The notes below the pieces were generated by a model that saw only the letters and a list, made by a program, of their open reading frames with translations, made no database searches and had not been told where the DNA came from. Shown piece by piece: positions 15,562 through 39,395 of a DNA stretch of 64,000 nucleotides. Position numbers and translations under genes: made by a program. Source of the stretch: Alcaligenaceae bacterium CGII-47 (GTDB taxonomy: Bacteria > Pseudomonadota > Gammaproteobacteria > Burkholderiales > Burkholderiaceae_B); assembly GCA_019166125.1 (NCBI GenBank), contig JAHTBO010000008.1, positions 1 to 64,000 of the forward strand, read 5' to 3'. Positions within the stretch are counted from its first letter, which is position 1. Every line of letters begins with the position of its first letter.

Positions 15562-17634
15562 ATGCCCATCACGTCATCAAACCCCGCCCCCTCCGCTCTG
15601 GATGCTTTGTGCATCAACACGCTGCGTTTTTTAGCCGTAGACACCGTACAGCAGGCCAACAGCGGGCATCCAGGCCTGCCTTTGGGCGCTGCTGCAATGG
15701 CCTACGTGCTGTGGACCCGGTTCCTGAAGCTGGCACCTGATCATCCGCAATGGTTTAATCGAGATCGCTTTGTGCTCTCGGCTGGGCACGGTTCTGCGCT
15801 GCTCTACAGTTTGTTGCACCTCACCGGCTTTGATCTGCCATTGGAGCAATTGCAGCAATTCCGCCAGTGGGGCAGTATCACCCCAGGGCACCCAGAACGT
15901 GGGACGACCGAAGGCGTAGAAGTCACGACGGGTCCCCTGGGCCAGGGCTTTGGCAATGGCGTGGGCATGGCGATTGCCGAGGCCCATTTGGCAGCTTGCT
16001 ATAACCGCGATGGGTTCAACCTCATTGACCATCACACTTATGGCATCGTCAGTGATGGGGATTTAATGGAAGGGGTCGCGTCAGAAGCAGCGGCGCTCGC
16101 CGGTCATCTACGGTTAGGCAAACTGATCTACCTCTACGACGATAACCGCGTAACGCTATCGGCAGGCACAGATATCACCTTTACCGAAGATCGAGCCCTG
16201 CGTTTCCAAGCCTACGGCTGGCATACGCAGGTGGTGGATGACGGCAATGATCTCGATGCAATTGAGCACGCGCTGTGTACGGCCCGCACGCAGACCGCAC
16301 AGCCATCCCTGATTTTGGTACGCACGCACCTGGGCTTTGGCTCGCCGAATAAGCAGGATACATATAAAGCCCATGGTTCGCCGTTGGGCACGGATGAAGT
16401 GGAACGTACCAAAAGCAGTCTGGGCTGGCCACAGGCGCCCGCGTTTTATATTCCCGCATCAGCCGCTGCGCATTTTAAGGCTTCCATGGATAAAGGTAGG
16501 CAGGCCGAGGAACAGTGGAATCATATGTTTCGCGACTACGAGCGCCACTATCCGACGCTGGCGCACGCGCTGCAGCAGCGCATACACGGTGAACTACCCG
16601 AGGGCTGGGATACTGATCTGCCCCAGTATGCGCCGGACGTCAAGGGGATGGCGACCCGTACCGCATCAGGCCAGATCATGAATGCGATGGCGGCGCGCTG
16701 GCCTGCCTTAATTGGCGGTTCGGCGGATCTGGATCCGTCAACGCATACCGAGCTGAGCGGGATGGGCGACTTTGAAGCCCCCGGCGTGAATGCCCTTGAC
16801 CGGCAAGGCTCAGCCGGTGGCGGTTGGAGTTACGCGGGGCGTAATCTGCATTTCGGGGTACGAGAGCATGCCATGGGAGCAATCATCAATGGCATCGCCG
16901 CGCATGGTGGGGCCGTGCCTTTTGGGGCAACATTTCTGGTTTTTTCAGATTATATGCGCCCCGCCATTCGTCTGGCTGCATTGATGCGCCTGCATGTAAT
17001 TTATGTTTTTACACACGACAGCCTTGCTCTGGGCGAGGACGGTGCGACGCATCAGCCGATCGAACAGATCGCCAGCCTGCGTGCAATACCACACCTGACT
17101 GTGATTCGTCCTGCAGATGCCAACGAAACGATCGCGGCCTGGCGTGTCGCGGTGACCGAGCGTCGACCTGTCGCGCTAGTGCTGACACGCCAGGATATCC
17201 CGACGCTACGGCGTGACACCTATGCAGGCGCTGATGGATTGCGACAAGGCGCGTACGTGCTGGCAGATGCTCCCAACGGTCACCCTCGACTGATTTTGAT
17301 GGGCAGCGGCTCGGAGGTCTCGCTCCTCGTGGATGCGCATCATCTTTTGCTATTGCTCGGCGTCCAGACGCGTGTGGTCTCGATGCCAAGCTGGGAATTA
17401 TTTGACGAGCAAACACAAGCCTATCGCGATACAGTGCTGCCCCCAGGCATCAAGGCAAGGCTTTCGGTCGAGGCCGGCGTCTCGCAAGGCTGGCGGCAAT
17501 ATGTCGGTGACCAAGGCGATATCCTGGCTATAGATCGGTTTGGCACGTCTGCACCGGGAGAGCGCGCGATGCGTGAATATGGCTTTACCGTCCAGAACAT
17601 CTGTCAACGGGCGATCACCTTGCTACATTTATAG
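15562..17634 (+). CDS. tkt: Transketolase
   Basis: The 690-residue thiamine-diphosphate enzyme moves two-carbon units between ketose and aldose phosphates in the non-oxidative pentose phosphate pathway. Visible features are [20 protein letters not shown] at the N-terminus, [12 protein letters not shown], the ThDP/Mg motif SDGDLMEG with YDDNRVT, and the pyrimidine-domain stretch [11 protein letters not shown]. The length is usual for the family. The gene runs toward the minus-strand glucan/pentose-phosphate operon and overlaps its last gene by 6 bp, so the two transcription units end against each other with no terminator between them. Together with tal, gnd, zwf and pgi it completes the pathway within this region. 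Confidence 0.95.
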
Positions 17635-18930: not shown

Positions 18931-18940
18931 GCACTAGTTC

Positions 18941-20617
18941 CTACGGCTGTGGTGCAGAAATCGCTCGATCAACAATATCCTGCGCCTGAGTAAGAATCTG
19001 TTGCAGATGTGCTGTGCCCAGAAAGCTCTCGGCATAGATTTTATAAATGTCCTCAGTGCCTGATGGACGCGCTGCAAACCAACCGTTAGCGGTCGTGACC
19101 TTGACGCCGCCTATTGGTGCGTGATTGCCTGGCGCACGGCTGATAATCGACTCAATTGCTTCGCCCGCTAGCTCGGTGGAGGTGATTTGCTGTGCCGATA
19201 AGGTGCTGAGCTTTGCCTTTTGTGCGGGTGAGGCTGCCGCCTCAAAGCGTTGTGCCACGGGCTTACCCAACTGTGTGGTCAGTTGCCGATACGCCTCGCC
19301 TGGATCGTGTCCCATCACCGCCGTCATCTCGGCGGACAGCAACGCAGCAATCATGCCATCTTTGTCCGTTGTCCAGACAGTGCCGTTGCGACGCAAAAAG
19401 GACGCACCCGCACTTTCTTCACCCGCGAAGCCCAATGCCCCCTCGAACAAGCCTTCTACAAACCATTTGAATCCCACAGGCACCTCAAGCAGATTTCGTT
19501 CCAGTCGCTTGACCACGCGGTCGATGATCTGACTGCTAACCAGGGTCTTGCCTATCGCCGCACGCGCACCCCACTGAGGTCGATGCTTAAATAAATAGTC
19601 AATCGCTACGGCGAGATAATGATTTGGGGGGAGTAAGCCAGCACTACGCGTAACGATTCCGTGCCGATCATAGTCGGTGTCGCACCCAAAGGCGATGTCG
19701 TACTGGTCCTTGATGGCAATGAGCCGCTGCATCGCATAAGGTGAGGACGGGTCCATTCTGATCTGACCATCCCAATCGACTGACATAAAGCTAAAAGTCG
19801 GATCCAGCTGGTCGCTTACGACGGTAAGTTCCAGCCGATAATGGTCAGCAATCCGCTGCCAATAATGCACACCTGCCCCGCCTAAAGGGTCTACACCCAT
19901 GCGGATTGCCCCACCCCGGATGGCATCCATATCGATCACATTGCCCAGATCATTGACGTAGGCGCCAAGAAAATCGTGTCGATGCGTCGTGTCTGCCAGC
20001 AGTGCGCGCTTGTGGGGCCATCTAAGCACGCCTTTAAGGCCAGCCTCAAGCAGACTGTTGGCCCGGCTCTCGATCCAGCGCGTGGCGTCAATATCCGCCG
20101 GCCCACCGTTGCTGGAGTTGTATTTATAGCCACCGTTATCAGGCGGGTTATGCGACGGCGTGATCACTACGCCGTCGGCCAGTGCGCTCGTACGCCCGCG
20201 GTTATACGCCAGAATCGCCAACGATACGGCCGGCGTGGGCGTGGTTTCATCGTCCTGAGATAGCATCGTCAGCACACGATTTGCCGCAAACACCTCCAGC
20301 GCGCTGGTCGATGCGGGCACGGACAAGGCATGCGTATCGATGCCAACGAAAATCGGGCCGCTAATCGCCTGCTGCTGGCGATAGTCGCAAATAGCCTGCG
20401 TGATGGCTAATACATGCCATTCATTGAAAGTGATCTCGAATGCCGAACCTCGATGGCCAGAGGTGCCGAATGCCACCCGCTGCTCGGCAACGGATGGGTC
20501 AGGCTGTTCGCTGTAGTAGCTCGTAATAAGCCTGGGGACATTAATAAGCAATGACGCAGGCGCTGGCTTGCCTGCCAAGGGGCTGATCTTCATTGTTTCC
20601 GTTGCTTCGATCGTCAT
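18941..20617 (-). CDS. pgm: Phosphoglucomutase, alpha-D-glucose-phosphate specific
   Basis: The enzyme interconverts glucose-1-phosphate and glucose-6-phosphate. The serine phosphate-acceptor motif is VITPSHNP, the metal loop is DTDYDRHGIVT, the sugar-binding loop is GFAGEESAGASF, and the phosphate-binding site near the end is RPSGTEDIYKIYAES. The protein is 558 residues from the ATG at 20617, chosen because AGGAGAG lies just upstream; the frame is open to 20680. In this operon it links glucose-1-phosphate from GH94 phosphorolysis to the glucose-6-phosphate enzymes pgi and zwf, and in reverse it would supply glucose-1-phosphate for UDP-glucose. It lies 46 bp after tal. Confidence 0.95.
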   Translation of the reverse strand: MTIEATETMKISPLAGKPAPASLLINVPRLITSYYSEQPDPSVAEQRVAFGTSGHRGSAFEITFNEWHVLAITQAICDYRQQQAISGPIFVGIDTHALSVPASTSALEVFAANRVLTMLSQDDETTPTPAVSLAILAYNRGRTSALADGVVITPSHNPPDNGGYKYNSSNGGPADIDATRWIESRANSLLEAGLKGVLRWPHKRALLADTTHRHDFLGAYVNDLGNVIDMDAIRGGAIRMGVDPLGGAGVHYWQRIADHYRLELTVVSDQLDPTFSFMSVDWDGQIRMDPSSPYAMQRLIAIKDQYDIAFGCDTDYDRHGIVTRSAGLLPPNHYLAVAIDYLFKHRPQWGARAAIGKTLVSSQIIDRVVKRLERNLLEVPVGFKWFVEGLFEGALGFAGEESAGASFLRRNGTVWTTDKDGMIAALLSAEMTAVMGHDPGEAYRQLTTQLGKPVAQRFEAAASPAQKAKLSTLSAQQITSTELAGEAIESIISRAPGNHAPIGGVKVTTANGWFAARPSGTEDIYKIYAESFLGTAHLQQILTQAQDIVDRAISAPQP

Positions 20618-20663
20618 TGCGCTCTCCTGCTTGCCGGGTTCTGCTTGTGCTGCACATGGTCGA

Positions 20664-21767
20664 TTATTTTGCTGTCCCACTTCTTTTTACTTTATTCAAG
20701 TCTTTGCTTTTCGAAGAAATACTTGCGAGCAACGCTTTCCATGATTTTTCGAAGGATTGGGTACCCTCTATCAGCAATTGGTCTGCCAGCTTGTCCAGAT
20801 TCACGCCAGCCTGTTGAAATTTTGCGAGAATCTGCGCAGCATCACCGCTATCTTCGCTCAGGACACCGGCCACATGCCCGTGATCGGCAAAAGCCAGTAA
20901 AGTGTTTTCGGGGATCGTATTAATAGTATCGGGCGCAGCCAATGCTTGTATATATAATGTATCTGATGCCTTCGGGTCCTTAGTGCCTGTACTGGCCCAC
21001 AGTAGCCGCTGGTGCCTGGCCCCTGCATCGGCCAATATACGCCAACGTGGCGAGGCCTGTAGCTCAAGGTATGCCTCATAGGCGGTCTTTGCCATCGCAA
21101 TTCCCAGGCAATTCTGTAAGTCTGCACTGACTTGATCATTGGCGGCCACATCCCATCGACTGACGAACAAGGACGCAACAGAGCTGACGACAGGATCGAG
21201 ATCGGCATTCAGGCGCCGTTCGATCCCTCGCATATACGCGCTGGCAGCATCAACGTACTGATCAGTCGAAAACAGCAGCGTCACATTGATTGGCACACCG
21301 CGAAAGATCGATTCCTCAATAGCGGCCAGTCCGGCCTGGGTCCCAGGTATTTTTATATATAGATTGGCGCGGGCAGCGAGACGGTGGAGCGCGACGGCAG
21401 CTTTGATGGTGGCCGGCGCGTCTGCCGCCAGCAATGGCGACACCTCAAGGGATACCCATCCATCGACGCCCTGTGTCGCCTCGTGCACGGGGCGAAATAG
21501 ATCGGCGGCACGCTGAAGATCTTCGATCGCCAGATTAAAGAATAGATCTTCACCCGATTGCCCAGCCTCCGCCTTCAGAGCGATAGCCTCGTCGTAGAGA
21601 TCGCTCTGGTCAATCGCCTTGTGAAAAATCGTTGGATTCGATGTCAACCCACTCACGGCCAAGTCCTGGATATAGCGCGCGAGTGTGCCGTCATTCAGAA
21701 TCCCACGCGTAATATTGTCCAACCAAAGGCTCTGGCCTGCTTGTTGTAGTTCGCGTGTTGCATTCAT
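20664..21767 (-). CDS. tal: Transaldolase
   Basis: The 367-residue enzyme transfers dihydroxyacetone between sugar phosphates. The N-terminal GLTSNPTIFHKAI loop, the Schiff-base lysine in ANLYIKIPGT, GVPINVTLLFS and LLWASTGTKDP are all present. The length and sequence are of the longer tal type, not the short TalB/FSA types. The C-terminal tail is lysine and serine rich. It lies 5 bp after the HAD gene and 46 bp before pgm in the same operon, and with transketolase at 15562 it gives the full non-oxidative branch. Confidence 0.95.
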   Translation of the reverse strand: MNATRELQQAGQSLWLDNITRGILNDGTLARYIQDLAVSGLTSNPTIFHKAIDQSDLYDEAIALKAEAGQSGEDLFFNLAIEDLQRAADLFRPVHEATQGVDGWVSLEVSPLLAADAPATIKAAVALHRLAARANLYIKIPGTQAGLAAIEESIFRGVPINVTLLFSTDQYVDAASAYMRGIERRLNADLDPVVSSVASLFVSRWDVAANDQVSADLQNCLGIAMAKTAYEAYLELQASPRWRILADAGARHQRLLWASTGTKDPKASDTLYIQALAAPDTINTIPENTLLAFADHGHVAGVLSEDSGDAAQILAKFQQAGVNLDKLADQLLIEGTQSFEKSWKALLASISSKSKDLNKVKRSGTAK

Positions 21768-21772
21768 GATTT

Positions 21773-22510
21773 TTACTCCTTGTTTGGTCGCACCAGGGTC
21801 GTTTGACTAAACACCGATAAATCGATATCCAACAAATCGCCGATATGCTGCACAGTGATATCAGCCGCCCATGGGTATAAGCGAATGTTTTCAGCATCAC
21901 AGGCGTAATGCCCTTGTTGCGGAAAAACGGTGGTTAAACGATCACCCAGCAAGGCTTTCATTGCAGCCAGAATACGTAGTTTGTCATCCACCATCACATA
22001 ATGTTGCGCCGGATAGCGTGTCATGACCGCATCGAGCATTTTTTCTTTGTGTATGTAGATCAATACACGGCCACCAACGGCATCCCACAGGCCCGAACGC
22101 TGGACCTTATGCGGCTGAAACACGGCATCTCCATCGCTCAGTATCACTGTACACCCGCATTGAGCAAGGCGTGCCAGAACCGCCAGAGCACCGGGATATA
22201 GACGATCCGCAAAAGGATATTCCAGCAAAAATGATGACATCAGCAATAGCTTGGGGTCGGTCATCAGGTCTTCTCGGTACCGTTGCAAGGCCCCCAGATA
22301 ATCGGTGTATCCCAGCTCGGCCCGTAGGTCTTCGAATATTTCCCAATAACGCCGAGCACTTTCGGTGCCAAACTGCTTAATCAGATGTTGCTTCAGGTCT
22401 GCTGTAACCTGATCATTATTCAACAAGGTATTGTCCACATCAAACAGAAAGACCCGCTCGTGAATGGCTGGCGTTTTGGCCGCTGGATGGCAGCGCTTGG
22501 CGTGGGCCAT
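21773..22510 (-). CDS. HAD-family hydrolase of unknown substrate
   Basis: The protein has 245 residues from the ATG at 22510. HAD motifs are visible in order: FLFDVDNTLL (nucleophile Asp and second Asp), VILSDGDA, a Lys region HKVQ, and VMVDDKLRIL. A helical cap of about 90 residues lies between motifs I and II, as in phosphatases of class C1. The start is chosen because the preceding GH94 gene ends TAG-C-ATG, leaving a single base between stop and start, which points to translational coupling. The frame extends to 22561 inside the upstream gene. Its place between a beta-glucan phosphorylase and transaldolase suggests a sugar phosphate substrate, but nothing in the sequence fixes it. Confidence 0.8.
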   Translation of the reverse strand: MAHAKRCHPAAKTPAIHERVFLFDVDNTLLNNDQVTADLKQHLIKQFGTESARRYWEIFEDLRAELGYTDYLGALQRYREDLMTDPKLLLMSSFLLEYPFADRLYPGALAVLARLAQCGCTVILSDGDAVFQPHKVQRSGLWDAVGGRVLIYIHKEKMLDAVMTRYPAQHYVMVDDKLRILAAMKALLGDRLTTVFPQQGHYACDAENIRLYPWAADITVQHIGDLLDIDLSVFSQTTLVRPNKE

Positions 22511-22511
22511 G

Positions 22512-25500
22512 CTATGCCTCTGCCTTATTGTTCTGTCTGGGAACATAGACCTGGACCTCATGGGTCAAACCATCGTCAATCAGCATCATTGCAGCGTCCG
22601 TCTGTGCAACCCCATCCACCAACACCTGCGATCTGACGTAAGCCCCCTGCCGCACCAGGATGGCGTAAGTTGACTCACCAAACCGATAGCTAATTTTGAA
22701 TGACTCCCATTTCGAAGGGATGCACGGTTCGATATATAGCTTATCAGCCAGGCGACGTAGCCCCAATACCGATTCGAGTACCAAGCGATACATCCATCCG
22801 GCCGAGCCGGAATACCACGTCCATCCGCCGCGGCCGGTATGAGGCGACAAGGCATAGACATCAGAGGCCACCACATAAGGCTCCACCTTATAGCGACGCA
22901 TCGCCTCCCGGTCTGCGGCGTGATTGAGCGGATTGATCAAGGAGAGCAACTCCCATGCCCGCTCTCGCTCGCCCAAGGCAGCAAACGCCATCACGGACCA
23001 GACCGCCGCATGCGTATATTGACCCCCATTTTCTCGCACACCTGGCACGTACGCCTTGATGTAGCCCGGATCCGGAACAGATGTGTCAAACGCAGGAGCC
23101 AATAGCTTAATGACGGCGCCCTCACGATCGACCAGCATGTCGTCCACCGACTGCATAGCCAAGCTCTGGCGCCCTTGCTGCGTTGGTGCATTGGCGAGTA
23201 CTGACCAGCTTTGTGCAATTGAATCAATCTGGCATTCACTATTTTGCGCCGATCCCAATACCGACCCATCGTCGAAATACGCGCGCTTAAACCACGCCCC
23301 ATCCCACCCGTGCGCATCAAGTTGTCGATCCAGTAGGGATGCTTGCTCTGTACAGCGTATCGCGAACGTGGTGTCACCATGAGTCCGTGCAATCTCGCTG
23401 AACTGGGTCAATACATGGTATAGAAAGAACGCCAACCAGATGCTTTCGCCCTTTCCTTGCGCGCCCACCATGTTCATGCCGTCATTCCAATCACCCGTCC
23501 CCATGAGGGGCAAGCCATGTGTACCGAAATGAAGCCCATTTTCGATTGCGCGCACGCAGTGCTCATAGAGCGTTCCAGGTTCGTCCGCTTGGCCAGGTAG
23601 CTCATAATAGGACGCTTCGCCTGGGTCGAGTGGGCGGCCGATCAGATAGGGCACCCACTCATCCAGCACGCCGGTGTCGCCGGTCGTAGTGATATAGCGG
23701 CAGCTTGCCAAAGGCAACCACAAATAGTCATCCGAACAACGCGTGCGCACCCCACGTCCGACAGGTGGATGCCACCAGTGCTGTACGTCGCCTTGCACAT
23801 ATTGGCGCGAGGCACACAACAATAAATGCTTGCGCACCAATTGCGCTTGCCCATGCACGAGCGCCATCACATCCTGCAACTGATCGCGAAAACCAAATGC
23901 ACCCGACGACTGATAGAACGCAGTGCGCCCCCATAAACGAGAAGCCAGGACCTGATAGAGCAGCCACCCGTTGGCGAGTAGGTCGAGCGCCCGATCAGGC
24001 GTTTCAATCGACACAGCGCCCAGTGTTTGCTGCCAATAGGCCGTGACGTGCGACAAGGCAGCCTGCGCAGCCGCCGTCCCGGCGTAGCGTGCAAGCAACG
24101 CAGCCACCTCATCATCGTCGCGACCGGCCCCGAGCTTGAATACGATTTCTCGCTCACCTCCCACCGCGAGATCAAAGGTCACCCGAATTGCGGCGCAGGG
24201 ATCCAACCCCGCACCGGCGACGCCGCCCAGATCCTTGACAATCATTGCAGCGGGGTTATCGGGTGCACCATTGCGGCCGAGAAACTCCGTGCGATCGGCG
24301 GTCCAGCTGTATCCGGTCTCATCCGTGGCAAAAAACGCCTTGCGTTCACCAAAGTCCGCGTTGTACGGATTACATGCAATGAATGCACCCTTGTTCGAAT
24401 TCATCCGCGTATGGATATGTGTCATGGTTTTTGTGCGCAGATCACCCAGCACCCATTCAACGTAAGCCGTCGTCGACAAACGACGTGGTCGGCTCGACTG
24501 GTTGCGAATCTTCAACACAATAAACTTCACGGCCGCATCGCGTGCCACATACATCGTGAGTTCGGAATCGATACCGGCTTGAGTATGGGTGAATACGCTG
24601 TAACCGAAGCCATGTCGGCAAGCATAACGGCCTGATCCTCGAGTCGGCCATGGCGTGGGCGACCAGAAATCACCACTGTCTTCGTCACGAAGATAATAGG
24701 CCTCACCCCCCGCGTCACCCACCGGGTCGTTAGACCACGGAGTAAGGAGAAACTCATGGGCGTTTTCGCTCCAGGTATTCGCGCTGCCGCTCTCCGAGAC
24801 CATTGTTCCGAATTGCGCATTCGCCAGTATATTGACCCAGGGTGCAGGTGTGCTCTGTCCGGAGTTCAGGGTGATGACATATTCCTGTCCATTGGCAGAA
24901 AAGCCGCCCAGCCCGTTCGCGCATTGCAGCGGCTGCACCGGATCTGCGCAAGCAGGAGCGTCCCGCGCTGACTCGAATGTATCCGGGGCCGCCCGCAGTC
25001 GGGGGAGCGGCGTTGCCACAGCGGCGTCTACCCGAGCTAGCTGCTCAGTCAGTGCGCCGACACGCTGGTCTAGCACCACCCGGGCGACGGCCAAAAGCAA
25101 GGTGTGATCGATCGACGACAAGTCCTGTAGCAAGACAAATACAGCGCCTATGCGATCAGTCGGCTTATCCCGCTGGTCAGCAGCGATTAGCGCGGTGATC
25201 TGTTCTTGTATGGATTGCGCGTAGGTGAGGCCAGGCACCTTACAAAACACCAGATCTACTGCCAGGCCTCGCGAGCGCCAGTATTCATGTGCGCGCAATA
25301 GATCTCTGATATCGTCCATATCAGGCATTGCACTCAACTGCAGCACAACAATCGGCACGTCACCGGAGATGGAAAATCCCCATAAGCCCGACTGGCCGCG
25401 ACGATTTTCGAGCAGGACGTCCGCATTCGCACGAAGCGCCAAATTCCCATACACAATCGAATCGGCGATCCGACTGTAGCGCTCGATTTGTTCTGTACTT

Positions 25501-30484: not shown

Positions 30485-30499
30485 CGTGATGCTCCTATG

Positions 30500-30515
30500 T
30501 GCCCTAATTTGGGCA
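30500..30515. promoter_or_regulatory. Inverted repeat in the divergent gnd / glucan synthase promoter region
   Basis: TGCCC and GGGCA arms surround TAATTT about 16 bp before the gnd start. It may be an operator or a leader hairpin controlling the pentose-phosphate/glucan operon. The arms are only 5 bp, extending to 8 with one mismatch, so this is tentative. Confidence 0.3.
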
Positions 30516-30650
30516 TGTCGATATTAAAGAAGTACTACAAAGCGCCGAACCACTCCGTTCGCTACCGTACATGGGTTGATAAGGCATTTGCGCTATCGTT
30601 TCCATCGTGGACGCTCGGTGGGTGTCCAGTCAGAATAAGGTGAGAAGGCA

Positions 30651-33600
30651 TTGAAATCAATTGGATCGGGTATGTTCAAACATGCACTCGAATGGTTGGA
30701 CGCCACGATCGGTCATAGACCCCAACAGCATCGGGCAGCAGCGGAGCGGCCGCTGCACGCAGAGTTATTCAGCACCCACCAGATGGCGGTGCATGGCGCC
30801 AATGTCGCGGCTCATCATAAGCTCAGTCCCGTACCAGCCAGAGATCTATTACTCGTACGGCTGAATGAAAACGCGCGCTTGCTGGGTCAAGCCTGCAGGT
30901 TACTGTCAAGCGCAGTGAAAACCAAACAGCAGATCGTACCGGCGGCCGAGTGGTTGCTGGATAATTTCTATCTGATCGAAGATCAGATTCGCGCGACAAA
31001 AAAACATCTGCCCCCAGGCTACAGCCGCACGCTACCACGTTTGATCAATGGTCCGTCATCAGGCCTCCCCAGAGTCTATGACATCGCACTCGAGATCGTC
31101 TCCCACAGCGACGCCCGGGTGAGTACTGAGAACCTCAGCAGCTTTGTCGAGGCTTATCAAAAAGTTACCTCTCTGACGCTGGGGGAGCTCTGGGCGATTC
31201 CCATTATGCTGCGTCTAGTCTTAATCGAAGACCTCCGGCGCATTGCCGTGCGCATATCTGGCAGCAGCCTGGACAGAAGCCAGGCCGATACCTGGGCCGA
31301 TCAAATGCGAGCGACCGCGCAGGAGGATCCGGCTCGTCTGGTGCTGCTCATCGCGGATATGGCGCGCTCGGATCCACCGATGGAAGGGCCATTTGTCGCT
31401 GAGCTGGCGCGACGCTTGCAAGGGCATGGACCCGCCCTGGCGCTACCGCTCACCTGGATCGAGCAGCGCCTCGCCCAGTCTGGCACAACGATCGAGCAAC
31501 TCATTCTCTCTGAGATCCAGCAGCAAGCCGCTGACCAGGTATCGATCAGTAATAGCATCGGCAGCCTGCGCCTTCTGGCATCGATGAACTGGCGCACGTT
31601 TGTAGAAGACATGAGCGTGGTAGAGCAAGTATTGCGCCAGGACGCTGCCGGGGTCTATCAACACATGGATTTTGCCACGCGTGACCGCTACCGCGGTTGT
31701 ATTGAGAGCATCGCCAAGCTCTCGGCGCGCTCTGAACAAGAGGTGGCCGAACACGCCATCGAGCTGGCCCGTACAAGCCTGACTACGCTCCCCGAGGATG
31801 TGCGTCGAGGTCATGTCGGTTATTACCTTATCGACAAGGGGCGTGCGGCACTCGAACGCGCTACCGGCGCGCGCTTAAGCCCCATACAGGCCTTGCATAG
31901 ACAAGCCAGACGCTATCCCTTGTGTTTGTACCTCGGGACGATAGGCCTACTCACCAGTGGCCTATGCGCAAGCATACTCGCCGTGGCGAGCGAGGACGGC
32001 GTACAAGACTGGATGTTGGTCAGTGTCGCTGTGCTTGCTCTCGTCTGTGCCAGCCAGCTTAGCGTGGCCTTGGTGAATTGGTTAAGCACCCTGCTTACCC
32101 AGCCTCATCCCCTCCCGCGCATGGACTACTCGCGAGGCATTCCATCGGTGCTGCGCACACTGGTTGTGGTGCCTTCGATGCTCAAATCCGTCGAGGATGT
32201 GGACGAATTAATCGAAGCTCTTGAAGTCCGCTTTCTTGCCAATCAAGATGACAGCCTGCACTTTTGCTTGTTGACGGACTTTACCGACGCAGATAGTGAG
32301 ACGCTGCCAAGTGATGAGCTGCTACAAACCCGTGCACAGGCCGGAATCGAGGCACTGAATCTTAAGTACAGTGCCCTACGCGATGACATATTTTTTCTCT
32401 TTCACCGGCCACGATGTTGGAACCCCAAAGAAGGGGTCTGGATGGGCGATGAACGCAAACGTGGAAAGCTCGCTGAGCTGAACGCATTTTTAGCTGGCGG
32501 TACAGGCGCTGCGTTCTCTTGTATTGTCGGAAAAGTCGCAGCCTTGTCCGGCGTCAAGTATGTGATTACCTTGGACACTGACACCCAATTGCCGCGTGAC
32601 ACTGCCAGCCAATGTGTGGGGGCGATTGCGCACCCCTTGAACCAGGCTCGACTTGATCCCTCCGGGCAGCGCGTGATCGAAGGCTATGGGATCTTGCAGC
32701 CGCGCGTGGCGACCAGCCTGCCTGGCGCCGATGCATCGCTGTATGCCCAGCTGTGGGGCGGTGAGCCTGGTATTGATCCCTATACACGCACGGTATCTGA
32801 TGTCTACCAGGATGTATTTGGCGAAGGCTCATTTGTCGGCAAGGGAATCTATGATGTTGAGGTCTTTCTTGCGACCCTCGCCGACATCCCCAAAGACACC
32901 GTGCTCAGTCATGATTTGCTTGAGAGCTGCTATGCACGCTCAGGGGTACTGAGCGATGTTCAGTTCTATGAGGAATACCCTGGGCGTTATAGCGCGGACG
33001 TCAGTCGCCGGCATCGCTGGATACGTGGAGACTGGCAGTTGCTCGGCTGGTTGCTACCCAATGTGCCAGGCCCCGACGGGCGGCGCATAAAAAACCCCCT
33101 CTCGGCTCTGGCGCGCTGGAAGTTATTTGATAACATCCGACGCAGCATCGTTCCCCCCGCTATGTTGCTCTTGTTGCTTTTGGGCTGGAGCAGCCTGCCT
33201 GCACCCTGGTTCTGGACGCTGATCGTGATCGGCATTCTATTGATTCCGTCCCTAAGTGTGTCCTTGCACGGCTTCGCACACAAGTCCGATGATATTTTAA
33301 TCAGACAGCATCTGCTCGCATCGCTACATTCGGCTGGCCAGCATATTGCTCAGGCGGGATTCGGGCTGGTCTGCCTACCTTTTGACGCGCTCTATCATTT
33401 GGATGCGATCGGACGCACGATATGGCGCATGGTAATTTCGCGCAAGCATCTTCTAGAGTGGGTGCCTTCTCAACAAACAGACACCCAGTGCTCGGGAACT
33501 CTGATCCATGCCTATCGCAAGATGTGGTTCGCTCCTGCCCTGGCAATTGCTTGCTTGATTTACCTGTCGGCGCGCCAACCCATGGCGCTATGGGCCGCTG

Positions 33601-36600
33601 CGCCAATTTTGTTGCTCTGGGTGACAGCACCGCTCTCGGCTTGGTGGATAAGCAGACCAATCATTTCCAAAGAGATCGCGCTGGGGCCCAGCCAGATTGC
33701 GTTTCTGCATAGGTTGGCACGTAAGACATGGGCCTACTTTGAAACCTATAGCGGGGCGCAGGACAATTGGCTGCCCCCTGACAACGTACAAGAACACCCC
33801 CCCGTGGGCATCGCCCACCGAACCTCGCCTACCAATATCGGCATTGCTCTATTGGCAAACCTGGCAGCCTACGACTTTGGCTATATCCCTGCGAGCGGCC
33901 TGATCGAACGCACTAGCAATACCTTTCACACTTTGGCACGAATGGAGCGTCATCGGGGACATTTCTACAACTGGTATGACACGCAGAGTCTCGCACCCTT
34001 GCCCCCCCTATATGTCTCAACCGTTGATAGTGGAAATCTGGGTGGTCATCTGCTGACGCTACAGCAGGGTCTGCTAGCGGTGATCGATGAGCCGGTCTTT
34101 GGCTCACGGATGTTCACCGGATTACGCGATACATTCAATCTCGCACCCGAGCATGCCGACGAGCATCTCCAGAGCACCATTGCGCCCTTTGAAAAGATAC
34201 TTGACTCAGTTTGTCAGGCAGCGCCGACAACGCTCGATGCTGCCACACAGTCGCTGGCACGCCTGGCTGCAGCACTCGAGCAGCTGGTTGCGAATGCTCA
34301 GCGTTCAGGGGACGCCGATACGAATGAATGGGCGCATATGCTTGCCGCACAATGTCAGGCGACCAACTCTGAATTAGAACTATTTACCGCCTGGACGCAG
34401 CTTGCTTCATCAGCCGAAGGCCCAGACCGCCTACCCAAACCGAGGCCAATTCCAACATTGCGTGAGTTGGCGCATGATCAAGAGCACGCTCCAGAAACAA
34501 GTGAATTAGCCCAACAACGCATTGATAAGCTAGAGCAGCTTGCAGCTCAGGCAGGCGACATGGCTAAGATGGAGTACGGATTCCTGTATGAACCCTCTAG
34601 TCACCTTCTGGCGATTGGCTATAACGTCAGTGATCGTCGACGCGACAGCAGCTATTATGATTTATTGGCATCTGAAGCCCGACTTTGCAGTTTTGTGGCG
34701 ATTGCCCAGGGGCAATTGCCCCAGGATAGTTGGCTCGCCCTGGGCCGACAGCTAACTACTTCAGGCGGTGGACCGGTATTACTCTCATGGAGCGGGTCCA
34801 TGTTCGAGTACTTAATGCCCTTGCTCGTGATGCCGATGCCCGCCAAAACACTGCTTGGTCAGACCTGTCGATCCGCAGTCAAGCGGCAGATCGAGTATGG
34901 CGTTCAACGTGGTGTCCCTTGGGGAATATCAGAGAGCGGTTATAACGCGGTGGATGCCAAGCTCAGCTATCAATACCGTGCGTTCGGTGTGCCGGGCCTG
35001 GGGTTGAAGCGCGGCTTAGCTGATGATCTGGTGGTCGCGCCCTATGCCACCATGCTTGCGCTCATGGTCACACCAGATGAGGCGTGCCGAAATCTGTTAC
35101 GCCTGTCTGCTGCAGGAGTGGAGGGAAAATACGGCTTTTATGAAGCCATGGACTATACGCCCACACGCCTGCCACGCGGCAAATCTGTAGCAATCATTCG
35201 CTCGTTCATGACCCATCACCAAGGCATGGGCTTCCTGTCTCTTGCGCACCTGTTGCTGGATCAGCCGATGCAAAAGCGCTTCGAGGCCAATCCAGCATTT
35301 CAAGCCACCTTATTATTGCTGCACGAGCGCATACCCAAAGCCACCGCGATCAGTGCCCGAGCCACCAGCCTGTCAATGGCGAATGCTGCGATACTCAGCA
35401 CGCCTGAGGCGCCCGTACGCGTATTCAACACCGCCCATACCGCGAGCCCCGAAGTGCAATTGCTCTCTAATGGGCGCTATCACATGATGGTAAGCAACGC
35501 GGGCGGAAACTCAAGCCGATGGAAGGATCTTGCGCTCACCCGTTGGCGTGAAGACGCCACGCGCGATAACTGGGGTGCGTTTTGCTATTTGCGTGATGTG
35601 GCAAGCGGAGAGATTTGGTCGACAACCTACCAACCTACCCTCAAAACGCCAGAACGCTACGATGTTATTTTCTCTGAGGGACGCGCCGAATTCCATCGGC
35701 GTGATCACGGTTTCGAAATCCATACCGAGATGGTGGTCTCACCAGAGGATGACATCGAGCTGCGCCGCAGTCACATCACCAATCACGCTCGCCATCGCAG
35801 AGTGATTGAGCTCACCAGCTATGCAGAAGTTGTATTGGCCACCTCAGCATCGGACGATCTGCACCCGGCCTTTGGCAATTTGTTTGTCCAGACCGAAATT
35901 ATTGAATCCGAAAGTGCAATCCTGTGTACCCGTCGCCCGCTTTCCCCCCAGGCGCAAGCACCCTGGATGCTACATAGGATGGCGGCTCATGGCGCCGACA
36001 TCGAACAGATTTCATACGAGACGGATCGAGCGTTGTTTGTTGGCCGAGGCCGCACGCTGGTCGAGCCACAGGCGATGGTTGATCGGGACGCGCTGCAGGG
36101 CTCTCAGGGCTCGGTGCTTGATCCGATTGTTGCTATTCGCTATCGGATTGCTCTGGAGCCCGAACAATCCGTCACCGTCGACATCGTCACGGGTGTCGCA
36201 GACACGCGCAGTCTGTGCCGTGCACTGATCGACAAGTATCAGGATCGCTATCTGGCTGATCGGGTATTTGAGTTGAGCTGGACGCATAGCCAGGTCATCC
36301 TGCGTCAACTTAATGCGACAGAGGCCAATGCTCAACTGTATGCGCGTCTGGCAAGCTCAATCCTCTATCGCAATGCGTCTTTGCGCGCCGACCCCAGCAT
36401 CCTCGTGCAAAACCGTCAGGGCCAGTCGGGGCTGTGGAGCTACGCCATTTCGGGAGATTGTCCGATTGTGCTGCTGCAGGTCAAGGATATAAAGAACATT
36501 AGCTTGGTGCGCCAGATGGTTCAGGCTCATGCATACTGGCGGCGCAAGGGCCTGATCGTGGATTTAGTGATTTGGAACGAAGATCGCGCGAGCTACCGTC

Positions 36601-39395
36601 AGGTACTGCAGGACCAGATCACGGGTCTGATCGCAGCAGGCATCGAGACACACCCCACAGATCGGCCAGGCGGCATCTTTGTGCGACCAGGCGACCAGGT
36701 ATCCGATGAAGACCGCATCCTGCTGCAATCTGTCGCCCTTGTCATTATTGACGACACCAAAGGCACGCTGATCGAACAAGTCAACCGATTGGCGTTGCCC
36801 GAGCCCAATATTCCGAAATTTATCCCGACCTGGAATAGACGCGAAGCAAATCATCGTACCCGAGCACTCACCGGACCTCGTGAGACAGAGAGTCATAACA
36901 GCGAGCCCGCCCTATCGACTGAGTATCCCCCTCCCACCCCCGCGATGCCTGCCCGAGAATTGATTCTGTCTAATGATTTTGGCGGTTTCACACCCGATGG
37001 CAAAGAATATGTCATCAGTCTTGAACCAGGCCAGAAAACCCCGATGCCTTGGGCAAACGTGCTGTCCAATGCGATGTTTGGCACATTGGTATCAGAGACC
37101 GGGCAGGCCTATACCTGGAGCGAGAATGCACACGAATTTCGTCTGACACCATGGAGTAATGATGCGATCAGCGATTTGGGCGGAGAGTTGTTTTACCTGC
37201 GTGACGAGGCGAGTGGTGAGTTCTGGTCGCCCACCCTACCCTCTGCCAGAGACACCTCGGCACGAGTGACCCGCCACGGCTTTGGCTACAGTGTCTTTGA
37301 GCACACTGAGGGCGGCTTGCATTCAGAACTATGGGTTTATGTAGCGCGGGAGGCCCAGATTAAGTTCTCTGTCTGGAAAATCCGCAATGACTCAGGTCGG
37401 ACGCGAACGCTCTCGGGCACGGCGTATGTCGAGTGGGTCCTCGGTGACTTACGCCCTAACTGCGCCATGCACGTGGTCTCGGAAATCGATCCGGATACCG
37501 CTGCCCTATGTGCCTATAACCCTTATCATCCTGAATTTTCCGCGCGAATCGGCTTTCTCGATGTCGATGCAGACAATGCAAGACATACCGTCACAGCAGA
37601 TCGCCGAGAATTCATTGGTCGTAACCGGACACTGCACCATCCCGCAGCAATGGATCGCGCCCGACTATCTGGCAAGGTGGGAGCTGGCCTGGATCCTTGC
37701 GCAGCAATACAAGTGCCTTTTGAGCTCATGGATGGCGAAGAGCGAGAAATCGTATTTAAACTGGGCATTGCACCCAGCCGCCTGGAGGCTAGCGAATTGA
37801 TCCGACAGTACCGAGGGCCTTCGGCAGCACATAAAGAGCTCGACGCCGTACGCCAGCAATGGTCCGATATCCTTGGCGCCGTCCAAATTCAAACACCCGA
37901 CCCGGCGCTTGATGTATTAACCAATGGTTGGCTGATGTACCAGATTATTGCCTGCCGACTTTGGGCGCGCAGCGGCCTGTATCAGTCAGGTGGCGCCTAC
38001 GGGTTTCGTGATCAATTACAGGATGTTATGGCTGTTGTGCATACTCAGCCTGAACTGACGCGTGAGCACTTGTTACGCTGCGCCGCCCGGCAATTTGTTG
38101 AGGGTGATGTGCAGCATTGGTGGCACCCACCGCTAGGTAGAGGTGTGCGTACTCGCTGCTCGGACGATTATCTATGGCTGCCCTTGGCGGTATGCCGCTA
38201 CGTATCCAGCACGGGCGATACGGGTGTGTTGGATCAACTCGCACCTTTTCTGGAGGGCCGCCCACTCGAGCCTGATGAGGCATCCTATTATGATCTACCG
38301 ACCTGCTCGGCAGAGTCTGCCAGCCTGTACCAGCATTGTGTGCGCGCAATTGAACGAGGCCTGCACTATGGTGAGCGTGGCCTGCCTTTGATGGGTTCAG
38401 GCGACTGGAACGATGGTATGGACAAGGTTGGCATACAGGGCAAGGGCGAGAGCGTCTGGTTGGCGTTCTTTCTCTACGACATCCTGCAGCAGTTCGGCCC
38501 GCTCGCTCGTGATTATGGCGACCAAGCCTTTGCGCAGCGCTGCGCCAAGCAGGCAGATCTTCTACGCCAAAACGTCGAGAAAAATGCATGGGATGGCAAT
38601 TGGTACCGACGTGCATACTTTGACGATGGTCAAGCGCTAGGCTCTGCGCAGAGTCCCGAATGCCAGATCGATTCCATCTCACAGAGTTGGGCAGTGCTAT
38701 CTGGTGCCGGAGAGACAGATCGCACGCGCACCGCCATGAACGCAGTCGACGAGCACTTGGTTCGACGCGACTACGGACTGATTCAGCTATTGAACCCGCC
38801 CTTTGATACCTCAGATCTCGACCCAGGCTACATCCGGGGCTACGTACCCGGCATTCGTGAAAACGGCGGTCAGTATAGCCATGCTGCGGTCTGGTCGATT
38901 ATGGCGTTTGCCAAGCTGGGTGAGCGCGCGCGCACCTGGGAATTGTTGCAGATGATCAACCCCCTGACCCATGGCGCGACCGCGCAATCCACCTACAAAG
39001 TTGAACCCTATGTCATGGCGGCAGATGTTTACGCAATTCCACCGCATATAGGACGAGGCGGATGGACCTGGTATACGGGCTCAGCAGGGTGGATGTACCG
39101 CCTGATCCTGGAGTCTGTGTTGGGCCTGCATCTGGAGGGGGGCCAATTAAGTTTCACCCCTTGTCTGCCCCCAGACTGGGACACCTACGCGCTGAAATAT
39201 CGCTATCGGAACACCGACTACCATATTACGGTTACACAGACAGACACCGCGATCGGAAGAACCCGAGTCACAATCGATGGTGTGCTTCAGGAAGGCGAAA
39301 CTATTCAGTTACTTGAAAGCGCCTCATCCTTCGAGGTCACCGTCGAGATTCCAATAGGCCCACAGCGACTAGACCACCCATCCACCGCTGACTAG
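30651..39395 (+). CDS. ndvB: Cyclic beta-1,2-glucan synthase (GT84, glycoamylase-like and GH94 domains)
   Basis: The 2914-residue membrane enzyme builds cyclic beta-1,2-glucan from UDP-glucose; the size fits NdvB/ChvB/Cgs. An N-terminal helical region spans about residues 1-410, with transmembrane helices at about 420-480. The GT84 domain at about 500-820 has the DxD site TLDTDTQLPRDTA (about 640), LSHDLLES and RRHRWIRGDWQLLGW. More helices lie at about 830-880 and 963-1000. A glycoamylase-like middle domain at about 1300-1565 is of the kind shown in other synthases to act as the cyclising transglycosylase (GH189). Two beta-sandwiches and a GH94 (alpha/alpha)6 domain follow, with GSGDWNDGMD at about 2583. 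The start is TTG 30651 with AAGGTG upstream; ATG 30672 is an alternative. It diverges from the gnd operon and its 3' end overlaps the AEC gene. Confidence 0.93.
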   Translation: MKSIGSGMFKHALEWLDATIGHRPQQHRAAAERPLHAELFSTHQMAVHGANVAAHHKLSPVPARDLLLVRLNENARLLGQACRLLSSAVKTKQQIVPAAEWLLDNFYLIEDQIRATKKHLPPGYSRTLPRLINGPSSGLPRVYDIALEIVSHSDARVSTENLSSFVEAYQKVTSLTLGELWAIPIMLRLVLIEDLRRIAVRISGSSLDRSQADTWADQMRATAQEDPARLVLLIADMARSDPPMEGPFVAELARRLQGHGPALALPLTWIEQRLAQSGTTIEQLILSEIQQQAADQVSISNSIGSLRLLASMNWRTFVEDMSVVEQVLRQDAAGVYQHMDFATRDRYRGCIESIAKLSARSEQEVAEHAIELARTSLTTLPEDVRRGHVGYYLIDKGRAALERATGARLSPIQALHRQARRYPLCLYLGTIGLLTSGLCASILAVASEDGVQDWMLVSVAVLALVCASQLSVALVNWLSTLLTQPHPLPRMDYSRGIPSVLRTLVVVPSMLKSVEDVDELIEALEVRFLANQDDSLHFCLLTDFTDADSETLPSDELLQTRAQAGIEALNLKYSALRDDIFFLFHRPRCWNPKEGVWMGDERKRGKLAELNAFLAGGTGAAFSCIVGKVAALSGVKYVITLDTDTQLPRDTASQCVGAIAHPLNQARLDPSGQRVIEGYGILQPRVATSLPGADASLYAQLWGGEPGIDPYTRTVSDVYQDVFGEGSFVGKGIYDVEVFLATLADIPKDTVLSHDLLESCYARSGVLSDVQFYEEYPGRYSADVSRRHRWIRGDWQLLGWLLPNVPGPDGRRIKNPLSALARWKLFDNIRRSIVPPAMLLLLLLGWSSLPAPWFWTLIVIGILLIPSLSVSLHGFAHKSDDILIRQHLLASLHSAGQHIAQAGFGLVCLPFDALYHLDAIGRTIWRMVISRKHLLEWVPSQQTDTQCSGTLIHAYRKMWFAPALAIACLIYLSARQPMALWAAAPILLLWVTAPLSAWWISRPIISKEIALGPSQIAFLHRLARKTWAYFETYSGAQDNWLPPDNVQEHPPVGIAHRTSPTNIGIALLANLAAYDFGYIPASGLIERTSNTFHTLARMERHRGHFYNWYDTQSLAPLPPLYVSTVDSGNLGGHLLTLQQGLLAVIDEPVFGSRMFTGLRDTFNLAPEHADEHLQSTIAPFEKILDSVCQAAPTTLDAATQSLARLAAALEQLVANAQRSGDADTNEWAHMLAAQCQATNSELELFTAWTQLASSAEGPDRLPKPRPIPTLRELAHDQEHAPETSELAQQRIDKLEQLAAQAGDMAKMEYGFLYEPSSHLLAIGYNVSDRRRDSSYYDLLASEARLCSFVAIAQGQLPQDSWLALGRQLTTSGGGPVLLSWSGSMFEYLMPLLVMPMPAKTLLGQTCRSAVKRQIEYGVQRGVPWGISESGYNAVDAKLSYQYRAFGVPGLGLKRGLADDLVVAPYATMLALMVTPDEACRNLLRLSAAGVEGKYGFYEAMDYTPTRLPRGKSVAIIRSFMTHHQGMGFLSLAHLLLDQPMQKRFEANPAFQATLLLLHERIPKATAISARATSLSMANAAILSTPEAPVRVFNTAHTASPEVQLLSNGRYHMMVSNAGGNSSRWKDLALTRWREDATRDNWGAFCYLRDVASGEIWSTTYQPTLKTPERYDVIFSEGRAEFHRRDHGFEIHTEMVVSPEDDIELRRSHITNHARHRRVIELTSYAEVVLATSASDDLHPAFGNLFVQTEIIESESAILCTRRPLSPQAQAPWMLHRMAAHGADIEQISYETDRALFVGRGRTLVEPQAMVDRDALQGSQGSVLDPIVAIRYRIALEPEQSVTVDIVTGVADTRSLCRALIDKYQDRYLADRVFELSWTHSQVILRQLNATEANAQLYARLASSILYRNASLRADPSILVQNRQGQSGLWSYAISGDCPIVLLQVKDIKNISLVRQMVQAHAYWRRKGLIVDLVIWNEDRASYRQVLQDQITGLIAAGIETHPTDRPGGIFVRPGDQVSDEDRILLQSVALVIIDDTKGTLIEQVNRLALPEPNIPKFIPTWNRREANHRTRALTGPRETESHNSEPALSTEYPPPTPAMPARELILSNDFGGFTPDGKEYVISLEPGQKTPMPWANVLSNAMFGTLVSETGQAYTWSENAHEFRLTPWSNDAISDLGGELFYLRDEASGEFWSPTLPSARDTSARVTRHGFGYSVFEHTEGGLHSELWVYVAREAQIKFSVWKIRNDSGRTRTLSGTAYVEWVLGDLRPNCAMHVVSEIDPDTAALCAYNPYHPEFSARIGFLDVDADNARHTVTADRREFIGRNRTLHHPAAMDRARLSGKVGAGLDPCAAIQVPFELMDGEEREIVFKLGIAPSRLEASELIRQYRGPSAAHKELDAVRQQWSDILGAVQIQTPDPALDVLTNGWLMYQIIACRLWARSGLYQSGGAYGFRDQLQDVMAVVHTQPELTREHLLRCAARQFVEGDVQHWWHPPLGRGVRTRCSDDYLWLPLAVCRYVSSTGDTGVLDQLAPFLEGRPLEPDEASYYDLPTCSAESASLYQHCVRAIERGLHYGERGLPLMGSGDWNDGMDKVGIQGKGESVWLAFFLYDILQQFGPLARDYGDQAFAQRCAKQADLLRQNVEKNAWDGNWYRRAYFDDGQALGSAQSPECQIDSISQSWAVLSGAGETDRTRTAMNAVDEHLVRRDYGLIQLLNPPFDTSDLDPGYIRGYVPGIRENGGQYSHAAVWSIMAFAKLGERARTWELLQMINPLTHGATAQSTYKVEPYVMAADVYAIPPHIGRGGWTWYTGSAGWMYRLILESVLGLHLEGGQLSFTPCLPPDWDTYALKYRYRNTDYHITVTQTDTAIGRTRVTIDGVLQEGETIQLLESASSFEVTVEIPIGPQRLDHPSTAD

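What the first reader, a model, noticed from the sequence alone, without database searches (positions are those of the whole stretch)
17629..39395. Beta-1,2-glucan synthesis, cleavage and phosphorolysis genes fused into a complete pentose phosphate operon
Seen: a tightly spaced minus-strand run gnd-zwf-pgi-GH94-HAD-tal-pgm-GH144, a convergent transketolase, and a divergent 2914-residue cyclic beta-1,2-glucan synthase. Known: GH144 enzymes cut beta-1,2-glucan, stand-alone GH94 relatives release glucose-1-phosphate from beta-1,2-oligosaccharides, and Pgm makes glucose-6-phosphate. Inferred: the cluster is a storage-and-mobilisation loop in which beta-1,2-glucan takes the part glycogen plays elsewhere and feeds the oxidative pentose phosphate pathway for NADPH and pentoses. 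In known bacteria this glucan is mostly a periplasmic osmolyte or a host-interaction factor. No cgt/ndvA-type exporter was seen in the window.
Basis: partly seen in the sequence, partly recalled or inferred. Interest (0 to 1): 0.85.

Follow-up and report, generated by a model that had tools for sequence, protein, structure and literature searches.

The report
Beta-glucan recycling genes in sugar-oxidation operon
This bacterium carries a sugar-polymer synthase, a cutter and a detached phosphorylase next to its main glucose-oxidation genes, which suggests that it may make this polymer inside the cell and burn it again, a use of beta-1,2-glucan that has not been tested.

Summary
The gene layout is real. 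Minus strand: gnd-zwf-pgi-GH94-HAD-tal-pgm-GH144 (17629-30484, gaps -53 to +38 bp); convergent transketolase; [quoted passage not shown] Two corrections. The stand-alone GH94 is not the oligoglucan phosphorylase (SOGP) type: it is the phosphorylase half of a CGS as its own gene, catalytic Asp kept. The pathway is not complete: PF01182 (pgl) has no match in the genome. New here: the arrangement recurs. 29 of 80 loci around this GH144 subfamily carry a pentose-phosphate/pgm gene against 1 of 40 control stretches; stand-alone CGS phosphorylases fall in two separate groups (one clade rejected, AU p = 2.5e-5), both with members in such loci. The GH144 has no leader-like N-terminus and all soluble domains of the studied CGS are cytoplasmic, so a cytosolic make-cut-phosphorolyse-oxidise loop is the best reading. 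A glycogen-like store is unproven: glgA and glgP are missing, but 5 of 6 glucan-less sister genomes also lack glgA, and CGS generally co-occurs with glgA. The exporter search found nothing over cut-off but had no positive control. New variant of a known kind.

The parts
30651..39395 (+). [quoted passage not shown]
   Evidence: Pfam PF10091, PF06165 x2, PF17167; match to Agrobacterium Cgs 8rf0/8rf9 in two stretches and to the TiCGS cyclase domain 8wy1; cyclase residues E1356, E1400, E1442 and the HH pair of TiCGS (named) are identical in the alignment; I placed them by hand, setting the numbering on the HH pair
29447..30484 (-). gnd, short-type 6-phosphogluconate dehydrogenase, 345 aa
   Evidence: NF007161 442 bits and TIGR00872 397 bits, both over cut-off; nearest solved chain 4e21
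28056..29450 (-). zwf, glucose-6-phosphate dehydrogenase; the only zwf match in this genome
   Evidence: TIGR00871 473.7 bits; one match in G000
26444..28108 (-). pgi, glucose-6-phosphate isomerase
   Evidence: NF001211 826 bits
22512..26405 (-). Stand-alone CGS-type GH94 phosphorylase, 1297 aa; residues 17-1250 align with Agrobacterium Cgs 1560-2802
   Evidence: catalytic acid D975 aligns with Agrobacterium Cgs D2528; 55% identical to the C-terminal half of the neighbouring CGS
21773..22561 (-). HAD-family hydrolase of unknown substrate, conserved in the cluster
   Evidence: PF00702; nearest solved chain 2p11, 'hypothetical protein'; 57-66% identical in four related clusters
20664..21767 (-). 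tal, transaldolase
   Evidence: NF002881 448 bits and TIGR00876 265 bits, both over cut-off
18941..20680 (-). pgm, alpha-D-glucose-1,6-bisphosphate-dependent phosphoglucomutase
   Evidence: TIGR01132 858 bits, cut-off 778
17629..18930 (-). GH144-type endo-beta-1,2-glucanase (SGL), 433 aa, no leader-like N-terminus
   Evidence: PF10091; best solved relative 8xul XcSGL, E 2e-119; E190 at the XcSGL position mutated in 8XUL, invariant in the 10 aligned sequences, window included; hydropathy of the N-terminus low
15562..17634 (+). tkt, transketolase, convergent with the operon
   Evidence: TIGR00232 857 bits
30485..30650 (.). 166-bp divergent region between gnd and CGS
   Evidence: no promoter-like hit there

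Best explanation
A cytosolic beta-1,2-glucan turnover loop. CGS polymerises UDP-glucose into (cyclic) beta-1,2-glucan on the cytoplasmic side. The leaderless GH144 enzyme opens rings and cuts chains inside the cell. The detached CGS-type GH94 phosphorolyses the linear pieces, with inversion, to alpha-glucose-1-phosphate. The alpha-type Pgm makes glucose-6-phosphate, which Zwf, Gnd, Tal, Tkt and Pgi take into the pentose phosphate pathway. The glucan would thus be a recoverable intracellular carbon pool, drawn on for reductant and pentoses, whatever other role (osmotic, envelope) it also has. Shown here: gene content, order, recurrence, catalytic residues, lack of a leader-like N-terminus on GH144. 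Inferred: substrate, reaction direction, co-transcription, location of the glucan, and any storage role.
For: (1) Residues: GH94 D975 aligns with Agrobacterium Cgs catalytic acid D2528. GDWNDG is kept in all 9 full-length stand-alone GH94s collected; Y[ST]GSA[GA]W is exact in 8 of the 9, not in L064 of G272. SGL E190 sits at the XcSGL residue that is Gln in 8XUL (E239Q in the paper). (2) Published chemistry that the gene set mirrors: the isolated C-terminal half of the Brucella CGS (1493-2867) phosphorolyses linearised cyclic glucan; a CGS no longer cleaves its finished rings; the GH144 enzyme CpSGL turns cyclic products into Sop2-4. (3) Compartment: of 94 SGL proteins (four fetched twice) 93 could be scored; 1 showed a hydrophobic stretch (12-residue mean hydropathy at least 1.6) upstream of the domain, and only from a distant start codon (a crude test, not SignalP). 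XcSGL has a signal peptide. All soluble domains of Agrobacterium Cgs are cytoplasmic. (4) Recurrence: stand-alone GH94, or remnants of it, with PPP genes and SGL in G271, G272, G277, G307, G370; SGL + CGS + PPP genes without it in G284, G274, G305; Collimonas, Rhodanobacter, Dyella, Nitrosomonas and Phenylobacterium loci carry parts of the set. (5) Linkage: 29 of 80 SGL loci hold at least one of gnd, zwf, tal, tkt, pgi, pgm and 13 of 80 at least two (21 and 10 of the 47 loci of at least 15 kb), against 1 of 40 and 0 of 40 control stretches, Fisher p = 1.5e-5. (6) Stand-alone GH94s are not one clade (AU p = 2.5e-5; 9 stand-alone, 27 CGS). In the GH94 search of 151 family genomes, which did not select for GH144, all 4 intact stand-alone genes and both remnant cases lie in GH144-PPP clusters. 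(7) CGS is the last gene of a gnd-zwf-tal-pgi-tkt-pgm-CGS run in G261 and follows gnd-zwf in G341. (8) GH94 enzymes are listed as giving alpha-Glc1P and Pgm is the alpha type. (9) glgA and glgP absent in G000; among 30 CGS-bearing family genomes glgA is in 1 of 9 with linked SGL and 18 of 21 others, Fisher p = 0.0002.
Against: No measurement of glucan, enzyme activity or expression. Five of 6 same-genus genomes lack glgA, all 6 lack glgP and none has CGS, so no replacement is needed to explain the lack of glycogen. G272 has both linked SGL and glgA. In the order sample 4 of 7 genomes with an SGL hit have glgA; of these, G114 and G173 show no PPP gene near SGL in the fetched contigs, G073 a partial gnd at a contig edge, and G026 was not fetched. 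CGS as such goes with glgA. 51 of 80 SGL loci show no PPP gene (26 of the 47 long ones). Orientation is not conserved: in G284, G274 and G305 SGL is on the other strand from the PPP genes, and in G261 CGS itself is co-directional with them. In G271, G272 and G370 the CGS lies on another contig. The Rhodanobacter-type and L100 stand-alone GH94s were found through the GH144 probe, so their nearness to GH144 is by selection. Linkage thresholds were set after I had seen the list, the control stretches come from one order while the SGL loci span many phyla, and two of the 80 loci are records of genomes in my query alignment (L107, L116). No beta-glucosidase or glucokinase was seen in the cluster for leftover sophorose and glucose. 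The chvA model found no exporter over cut-off in 22 genomes, but no control genome was expected to have one. The 9 linked family genomes are only 6 genera.
Confidence: 0.5

Rival explanations
1. Periplasmic-glucan housekeeping: CGS makes the envelope or osmotic glucan, exported by an unrecognised transporter, and the cytosolic GH144 plus GH94 only clear or trim surplus or over-long glucan before export. The link to PPP genes reflects shared glucose-phosphate supply.
For: Known CGS products are osmotic or host-interaction glucans. MdoG/OpgG has no match here (OpgH not searched), so CGS is the only periplasmic-glucan gene type that I found. In G261 and G341 CGS is joined to PPP genes without SGL or stand-alone GH94, as a precursor-supply cluster would be. 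The GP domain of Agrobacterium Cgs has a length-control role.
Against: The degrading genes, not CGS, are co-directional with zwf, gnd and tal in the window, though not in every relative. Trimming needs only the GH94 domain already inside CGS, yet a separate copy exists in two separate groups. No chvA-type exporter over cut-off (no positive control).
Confidence: 0.3
2. True glycogen-like reserve, a stronger form of the best explanation: the glucan is the main intracellular carbon and energy store, replacing glycogen.
For: glgA and glgP absent. Nine of 10 genomes with clearly PPP-linked SGL lack glgA, G272 being the exception. Own genome has its only zwf match in this cluster.
Against: CGS-less same-genus genomes also mostly lack glgA. 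CGS is positively associated with glgA in the order sample. Other stores such as polyhydroxybutyrate were not searched for.
Confidence: 0.2
3. Catabolism of foreign beta-1,2-glucans: GH144 and GH94 digest imported sophoro-oligosaccharides, and CGS is an unrelated neighbour.
For: Known SOGP and SGL-family clusters in Listeria and Streptomyces have ABC importers and beta-glucosidases (passages).
Against: No importer or beta-glucosidase within the operon; GH144 has no leader-like N-terminus; CGS adjoins the cluster in G000, G277, G307, G284, G274 and G305, lies about 3.4 kb from it in G007, and adjoins PPP genes in G261 and G341.
Confidence: 0.1
4. Incidental clustering: horizontally moved carbohydrate genes that happen to lie together.
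For: None of 6 same-genus genomes has CGS/GH94 or SGL; an integrase and a KfrA-type gene lie at 231-2495.
Against: Recurrence in six genera of the family and in other orders, and 29 of 80 against 1 of 40 linkage.
Confidence: 0.03

Closest known systems
[quoted passage not shown]
   Same: Alignment over the whole domain, 55% identity to own CGS C-terminal half, catalytic Asp kept
   Different: Separate gene without the glycosyltransferase, membrane and cyclase parts; sits in a central-carbon operon
[quoted passage not shown]
   Same: GH94, presumed beta-1,2-glucan phosphorolysis
   Different: Only a marginal sequence match to 5h3z (E 1e-8 against 8e-295 for Cgs). That 5h3z is LpSOGP is recalled; the call names it 'uncharacterized protein'.
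GH144 endo-beta-1,2-glucanase (XcSGL, CpSGL)
   Same: E 2e-119 to XcSGL; catalytic Glu position kept
   Different: No leader-like N-terminus, whereas XcSGL has a signal peptide; coupled to PPP genes
Bacterial glycogen operon glgP-glgB-glgC-glgA-pgm (recalled, no call)
   Same: Analogous logic: polymer synthase, phosphorylase, pgm
   Different: No glgA or glgP here; beta-1,2 instead of alpha-1,4/1,6 glucan
gnd-zwf-GH15 cluster of relatives
   Same: gnd and zwf beside a GH15 (trehalase-type N-terminal domain) gene in 2 of 3 loci tested; the third has a glucose/sorbosone dehydrogenase
   Different: No CGS, SGL, GH94, tal, pgi or pgm match in any of the 20 zwf loci fetched

Membership tests
CGS-type GH94 phosphorylase (GP domain) | Full GP1-RFL-GP2-GP3 length homology to the Cgs C-terminal half | tested here: met
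   Residues 17-1250 align to Cgs 1560-2802; the RFL part, 1847-2012, lies inside this range
CGS-type GH94 phosphorylase (GP domain) | Catalytic Asp (Agrobacterium D2528) | tested here: met
   D975
CGS-type GH94 phosphorylase (GP domain) | Phosphorolysis of beta-1,2-glucan | not testable with these tools
   needs an enzyme assay
SOGP (1,2-beta-oligoglucan phosphorylase) | Closest sequence kinship to SOGP within GH94 | tested here: not met
   5h3z is the weakest of 21 hits
GH144 | Sequence homology to characterised GH144 enzymes | tested here: met
   8xul XcSGL E 2e-119, 5gzh/5gzk E 9e-34; XcSGL and CpSGL are classed GH144
GH144 | Conserved catalytic Glu (XcSGL E239) | tested here: met
   E190, invariant in the 10 aligned sequences; position identified by the Gln of the mutant chain
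[quoted passage not shown]
   alignment with residues named, placed by hand
[quoted passage not shown]
   homology to 8rf0/8rf9 only
ChvA/NdvA/Cgt exporter system | chvA-type ABC exporter (TIGR01192 over cut-off) in the genome | tested here: inconclusive
   0 of 22 genomes over the 585-bit cut-off, best own hit 306 bits; none of the 14 control genomes over it either
Complete pentose phosphate pathway | 6-phosphogluconolactonase (PF01182) | tested here: not met
   no match in G000; a match in each of the other 8 linked family genomes; YbhE-type lactonase, rpe and rpiA not searched in the genome
Glycogen storage pathway | glgA and glgP | tested here: not met
   glgC, glgB and the GlgE route not tested

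The most novel reading that the evidence does not exclude
Beta-1,2-glucan is a cytosolic reserve polymer in several bacterial lineages: made by CGS, opened by a leaderless GH144, and phosphorolysed by a phosphorylase module that separated from CGS at least twice, feeding the pentose phosphate pathway directly.
Probability: 0.33. Interest if true: 0.85.

Novelty: new variant of a known kind. Interest (0 to 1): 0.64.

Why it matters
Beta-1,2-glucans are described as periplasmic or secreted osmolytes and host-interaction factors. A natural detached CGS phosphorylase, present in two separate groups, beside a leaderless GH144 and the pentose phosphate genes would add a carbon-recovery role and give a directly testable system: strains in culture collections such as Paralcaligenes ureilyticus DSM 24591 carry the set. 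It also offers enzymologists a free-standing CGS phosphorylase to assay without the large membrane protein.

Tried and rejected
FNR-box-like pattern scan of the window: 46 matches with up to 2 mismatches, mean 27 expected; none in the gnd-CGS region; no conclusion drawn. Sigma-70 scan of 15300-30800: 4 sites where 12 are expected by chance, none in the divergent region. No tRNA in the window. The glgA anti-correlation was rejected as a general rule after the order sample. The SOGP label for GH94 was rejected. Rows dropped: L126 (probable split CGS), L141 and L069 fragments (contig ends) and L014 (same genome as L192) before the first tree; L121 (1000 aa, no GDWNDG) also before the AU test; 16 of the CGS rows that I had not kept on purpose were drawn at random for it. 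The first tree, with L121, gave the same two groups. The AU test used LG+G4 without mixture, on a quick tree, and flagged two stand-alone rows (L146, L174) for odd composition. G153's 1256-aa open frame runs to a contig end and is not counted as stand-alone. Paper searches: searches returned nothing, probably because of term spelling, and one search returned nothing; others (30 of 45 papers listed; 20 of 68; 20 of 380; 8 of 8; 10 of 54) listed no paper whose title or abstract start describes this coupling. What I saw of papers: PMC12102758 section 9 and passages; PMC11842490 outline and sections 4, 9, 11; PMC10901819 sections 9, 12 and passages; PMC10834661 section 17 and passages; PMC3960220 section 23 and passages; PMC12369401 and PMC8950772 passages; all others as listings only. 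Structure prediction was not used: the GH94 (1297 aa) exceeds the 1200-aa limit, and I did not fold the SGL or HAD.

Full report
OBSERVATION. The window is part of C39 of a 3.45-Mb genome (G000). The species itself was not named.

CORRECTIONS. The stand-alone GH94 is the C-terminal half of a CGS, not an SOGP. Its best solved matches are Agrobacterium Cgs/NdvB (E 8e-295), while 5h3z (LpSOGP, by recall) is the last of 21 hits. It is 55% identical to the C-terminal half of the CGS next door, and most hits in 250 genomes of the order are full-length CGS frames. The pathway is not complete: PF01182 has no match in G000, though each of the other 8 linked family genomes has one. The zwf of this operon is the only zwf match in the genome; among 6 same-genus genomes 4 have none and 2 have one of higher score. 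The one of these that I looked at, in G352, is 39% identical and has no such cluster around it.

CATALYTIC SITES AND COMPARTMENT. GH94 D975 aligns with Agrobacterium Cgs D2528, named as catalytic acid in the paper. GDWNDG is present in all 9 full-length stand-alone GH94s collected; one further 1000-aa frame (L121) and the CGS of G007 (L192) lack the exact motif. SGL E190 aligns with the XcSGL residue that is Gln in 8XUL; the paper describes the E239Q mutant complex. The cyclase domain of CGS keeps the residues named for TiCGS. Of 93 SGL proteins that could be scored, 1 had a hydrophobic stretch before the domain, and only from a distant start codon; XcSGL has a signal peptide. In Agrobacterium Cgs all soluble domains face the cytoplasm.

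WHY THE PARTS FIT. Published work (sections and passages read) reports that a CGS does not cleave its finished rings, that the endo-acting GH144 CpSGL turns rings into Sop2-4, and that the isolated C-terminal half of the Brucella CGS phosphorolyses linearised ring glucan, more weakly than Lin1839 acts on Sop3. The operon encodes natural versions of these two steps. GH94 phosphorylases are listed as inverting with alpha-Glc1P, and the operon's Pgm is the alpha type (TIGR01132).

RECURRENCE. In a family sample of 151 genomes, 30 have a CGS/GH94 match and 11 an SGL match. In 9 of those 11 the SGL lies within about 15 kb of PPP genes: G000, G271, G272, G277, G307, G370, G284, G274 and G305. The other two, G344 and G364, show none. 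Stand-alone GH94 is intact in G000, G271, G272 and G277, split over two contig ends in G307, and reduced to a 995-aa frame in G370. The CGS adjoins the cluster in G000, G277, G307, G284, G274 and G305, but lies on another contig in G271, G272 and G370. The clusters of G272 and G370 lack gnd and zwf. In G261 CGS closes a gnd-zwf-tal-pgi-tkt-pgm-CGS run and in G341 a gnd-zwf-CGS run, both without SGL. G007 has CGS, gnd, pgm, SGL and tkt in one neighbourhood. The named-genome scan returned 80 loci, the best of at least 555 relatives; one search lists their neighbours.

CONTROLS. With identity thresholds set after I had seen, 29 of 80 SGL loci have at least one of gnd, zwf, tal, tkt, pgi, pgm, and 13 at least two; of 40 control 20-kb stretches 1 and 0 (Fisher p = 1.5e-5). 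Many SGL loci are shorter than 20 kb, which works against the link; among the 47 of at least 15 kb the counts are 21 and 10. The controls come from one order, the SGL loci from many phyla, and two of the 80 loci (L107, L116) are records of genomes in the query alignment, so the comparison is approximate. Twenty zwf loci from family genomes, chosen outside the glucan clusters (two of them from the linked genomes G272 and G370), show no CGS, SGL, GH94, tal, pgi or pgm match. In three of these I gave neighbours to Pfam: two have a GH15 gene by zwf, the third a glucose/sorbosone dehydrogenase.

ORIGIN OF THE DETACHED MODULE. A tree of 9 stand-alone GH94s and 27 CGS C-terminal halves places the stand-alone ones in two groups: Rhodanobacter/Lysobacterales on one side; the window, G271, G272, G277 and a Syntrophaceae-labelled MAG (L100) on the other, with CGS on both sides. 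One clade is rejected (AU p = 2.5e-5). The tree is unrooted, so two changes are shown and the direction (separation, not fusion) is inferred. The Rhodanobacter-type rows and L100 came from the GH144 probe, so their nearness to GH144 is by selection; within the family the GH94 search was not so selected, and there all 4 intact and both remnant cases lie in GH144-PPP clusters. Whether Rhodanobacter also has a CGS was not tested.

GLYCOGEN AND EXPORT. G000 has no glgA over cut-off and no glgP. Among the 30 CGS-bearing family genomes glgA is in 1 of 9 with linked SGL and 18 of 21 others (Fisher p = 0.0002; six genera, and the grouping was made after seeing the data). Against this: same-genus genomes without CGS also mostly lack glgA (5 of 6), G272 has both, 4 of 7 SGL-bearing genomes of the order sample have glgA, and CGS goes with glgA overall, 35 of 48 against 105 of 202. 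glgP is missing from 26 of the 36 genomes tested, so its absence says little. MdoG has no match in the 9 linked genomes. TIGR01192 gives nothing over cut-off in 22 genomes, without a positive control.

VERDICT. The mechanism of cytosolic turnover into glucose-6-phosphate is the best-supported reading; the storage claim remains a hypothesis.

Noticed in passing
L068:7145-8116 and L093:9399-10427: A DUF2090 (LacD/DeoC aldolase-like) gene sits between pgi and pgm in the cluster of G277, and between pgi and tkt in that of G284; function unknown.
   Followed up: partly
window 21773-22561: The HAD hydrolase is conserved in the glucan-PPP clusters and its nearest solved structure (2p11) is a hypothetical protein; a sugar-phosphate substrate is worth testing.
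   Followed up: partly
L192:2936-11776: The CGS of G007 lacks the exact GDWNDG motif that holds the GH94 catalytic Asp in the other sequences printed; its phosphorylase domain may be altered.
   Followed up: no
L202:18881-19837: An SMP-30/gluconolactonase-type gene lies next to the CGS that ends the PPP run in G261, a possible lactonase in such clusters.
   Followed up: no
window 231-2495: A phage-type integrase and a KfrA-type gene at the window start, about 13 kb from the transketolase gene, may mark a mobile-element border; CGS/GH94 and SGL are absent from 6 sampled same-genus genomes.
   Followed up: no
window 48569-52621: Band_7, fumarase C and GAPDH genes; in L211 (G364) GAPDH, fumC, NfeD and Band_7 lie beside gnd-zwf-GH15, so the window may hold a rearranged form of that block.
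   Followed up: partly
window 14601-15374: A Crp-like regulator; 53-67% relatives lie in the fetched CGS/SGL/PPP loci L093, L075 and L121.
   Followed up: no
L097:13590-15131, L099:12462-14003, L098:8324-9904: A second, about 50%-identical SGL type in G364, G344 and G277 has a neighbouring 514-527-aa ORF each time.
   Followed up: no
window 39369-40346: A PF03547 membrane transport protein overlaps the 3' end of CGS by 27 bp on the opposite strand.
   Followed up: no
L198:7846-11334: A 1163-aa open frame overlapping an SGL frame end has no Pfam match; it may not be a gene.
   Followed up: no
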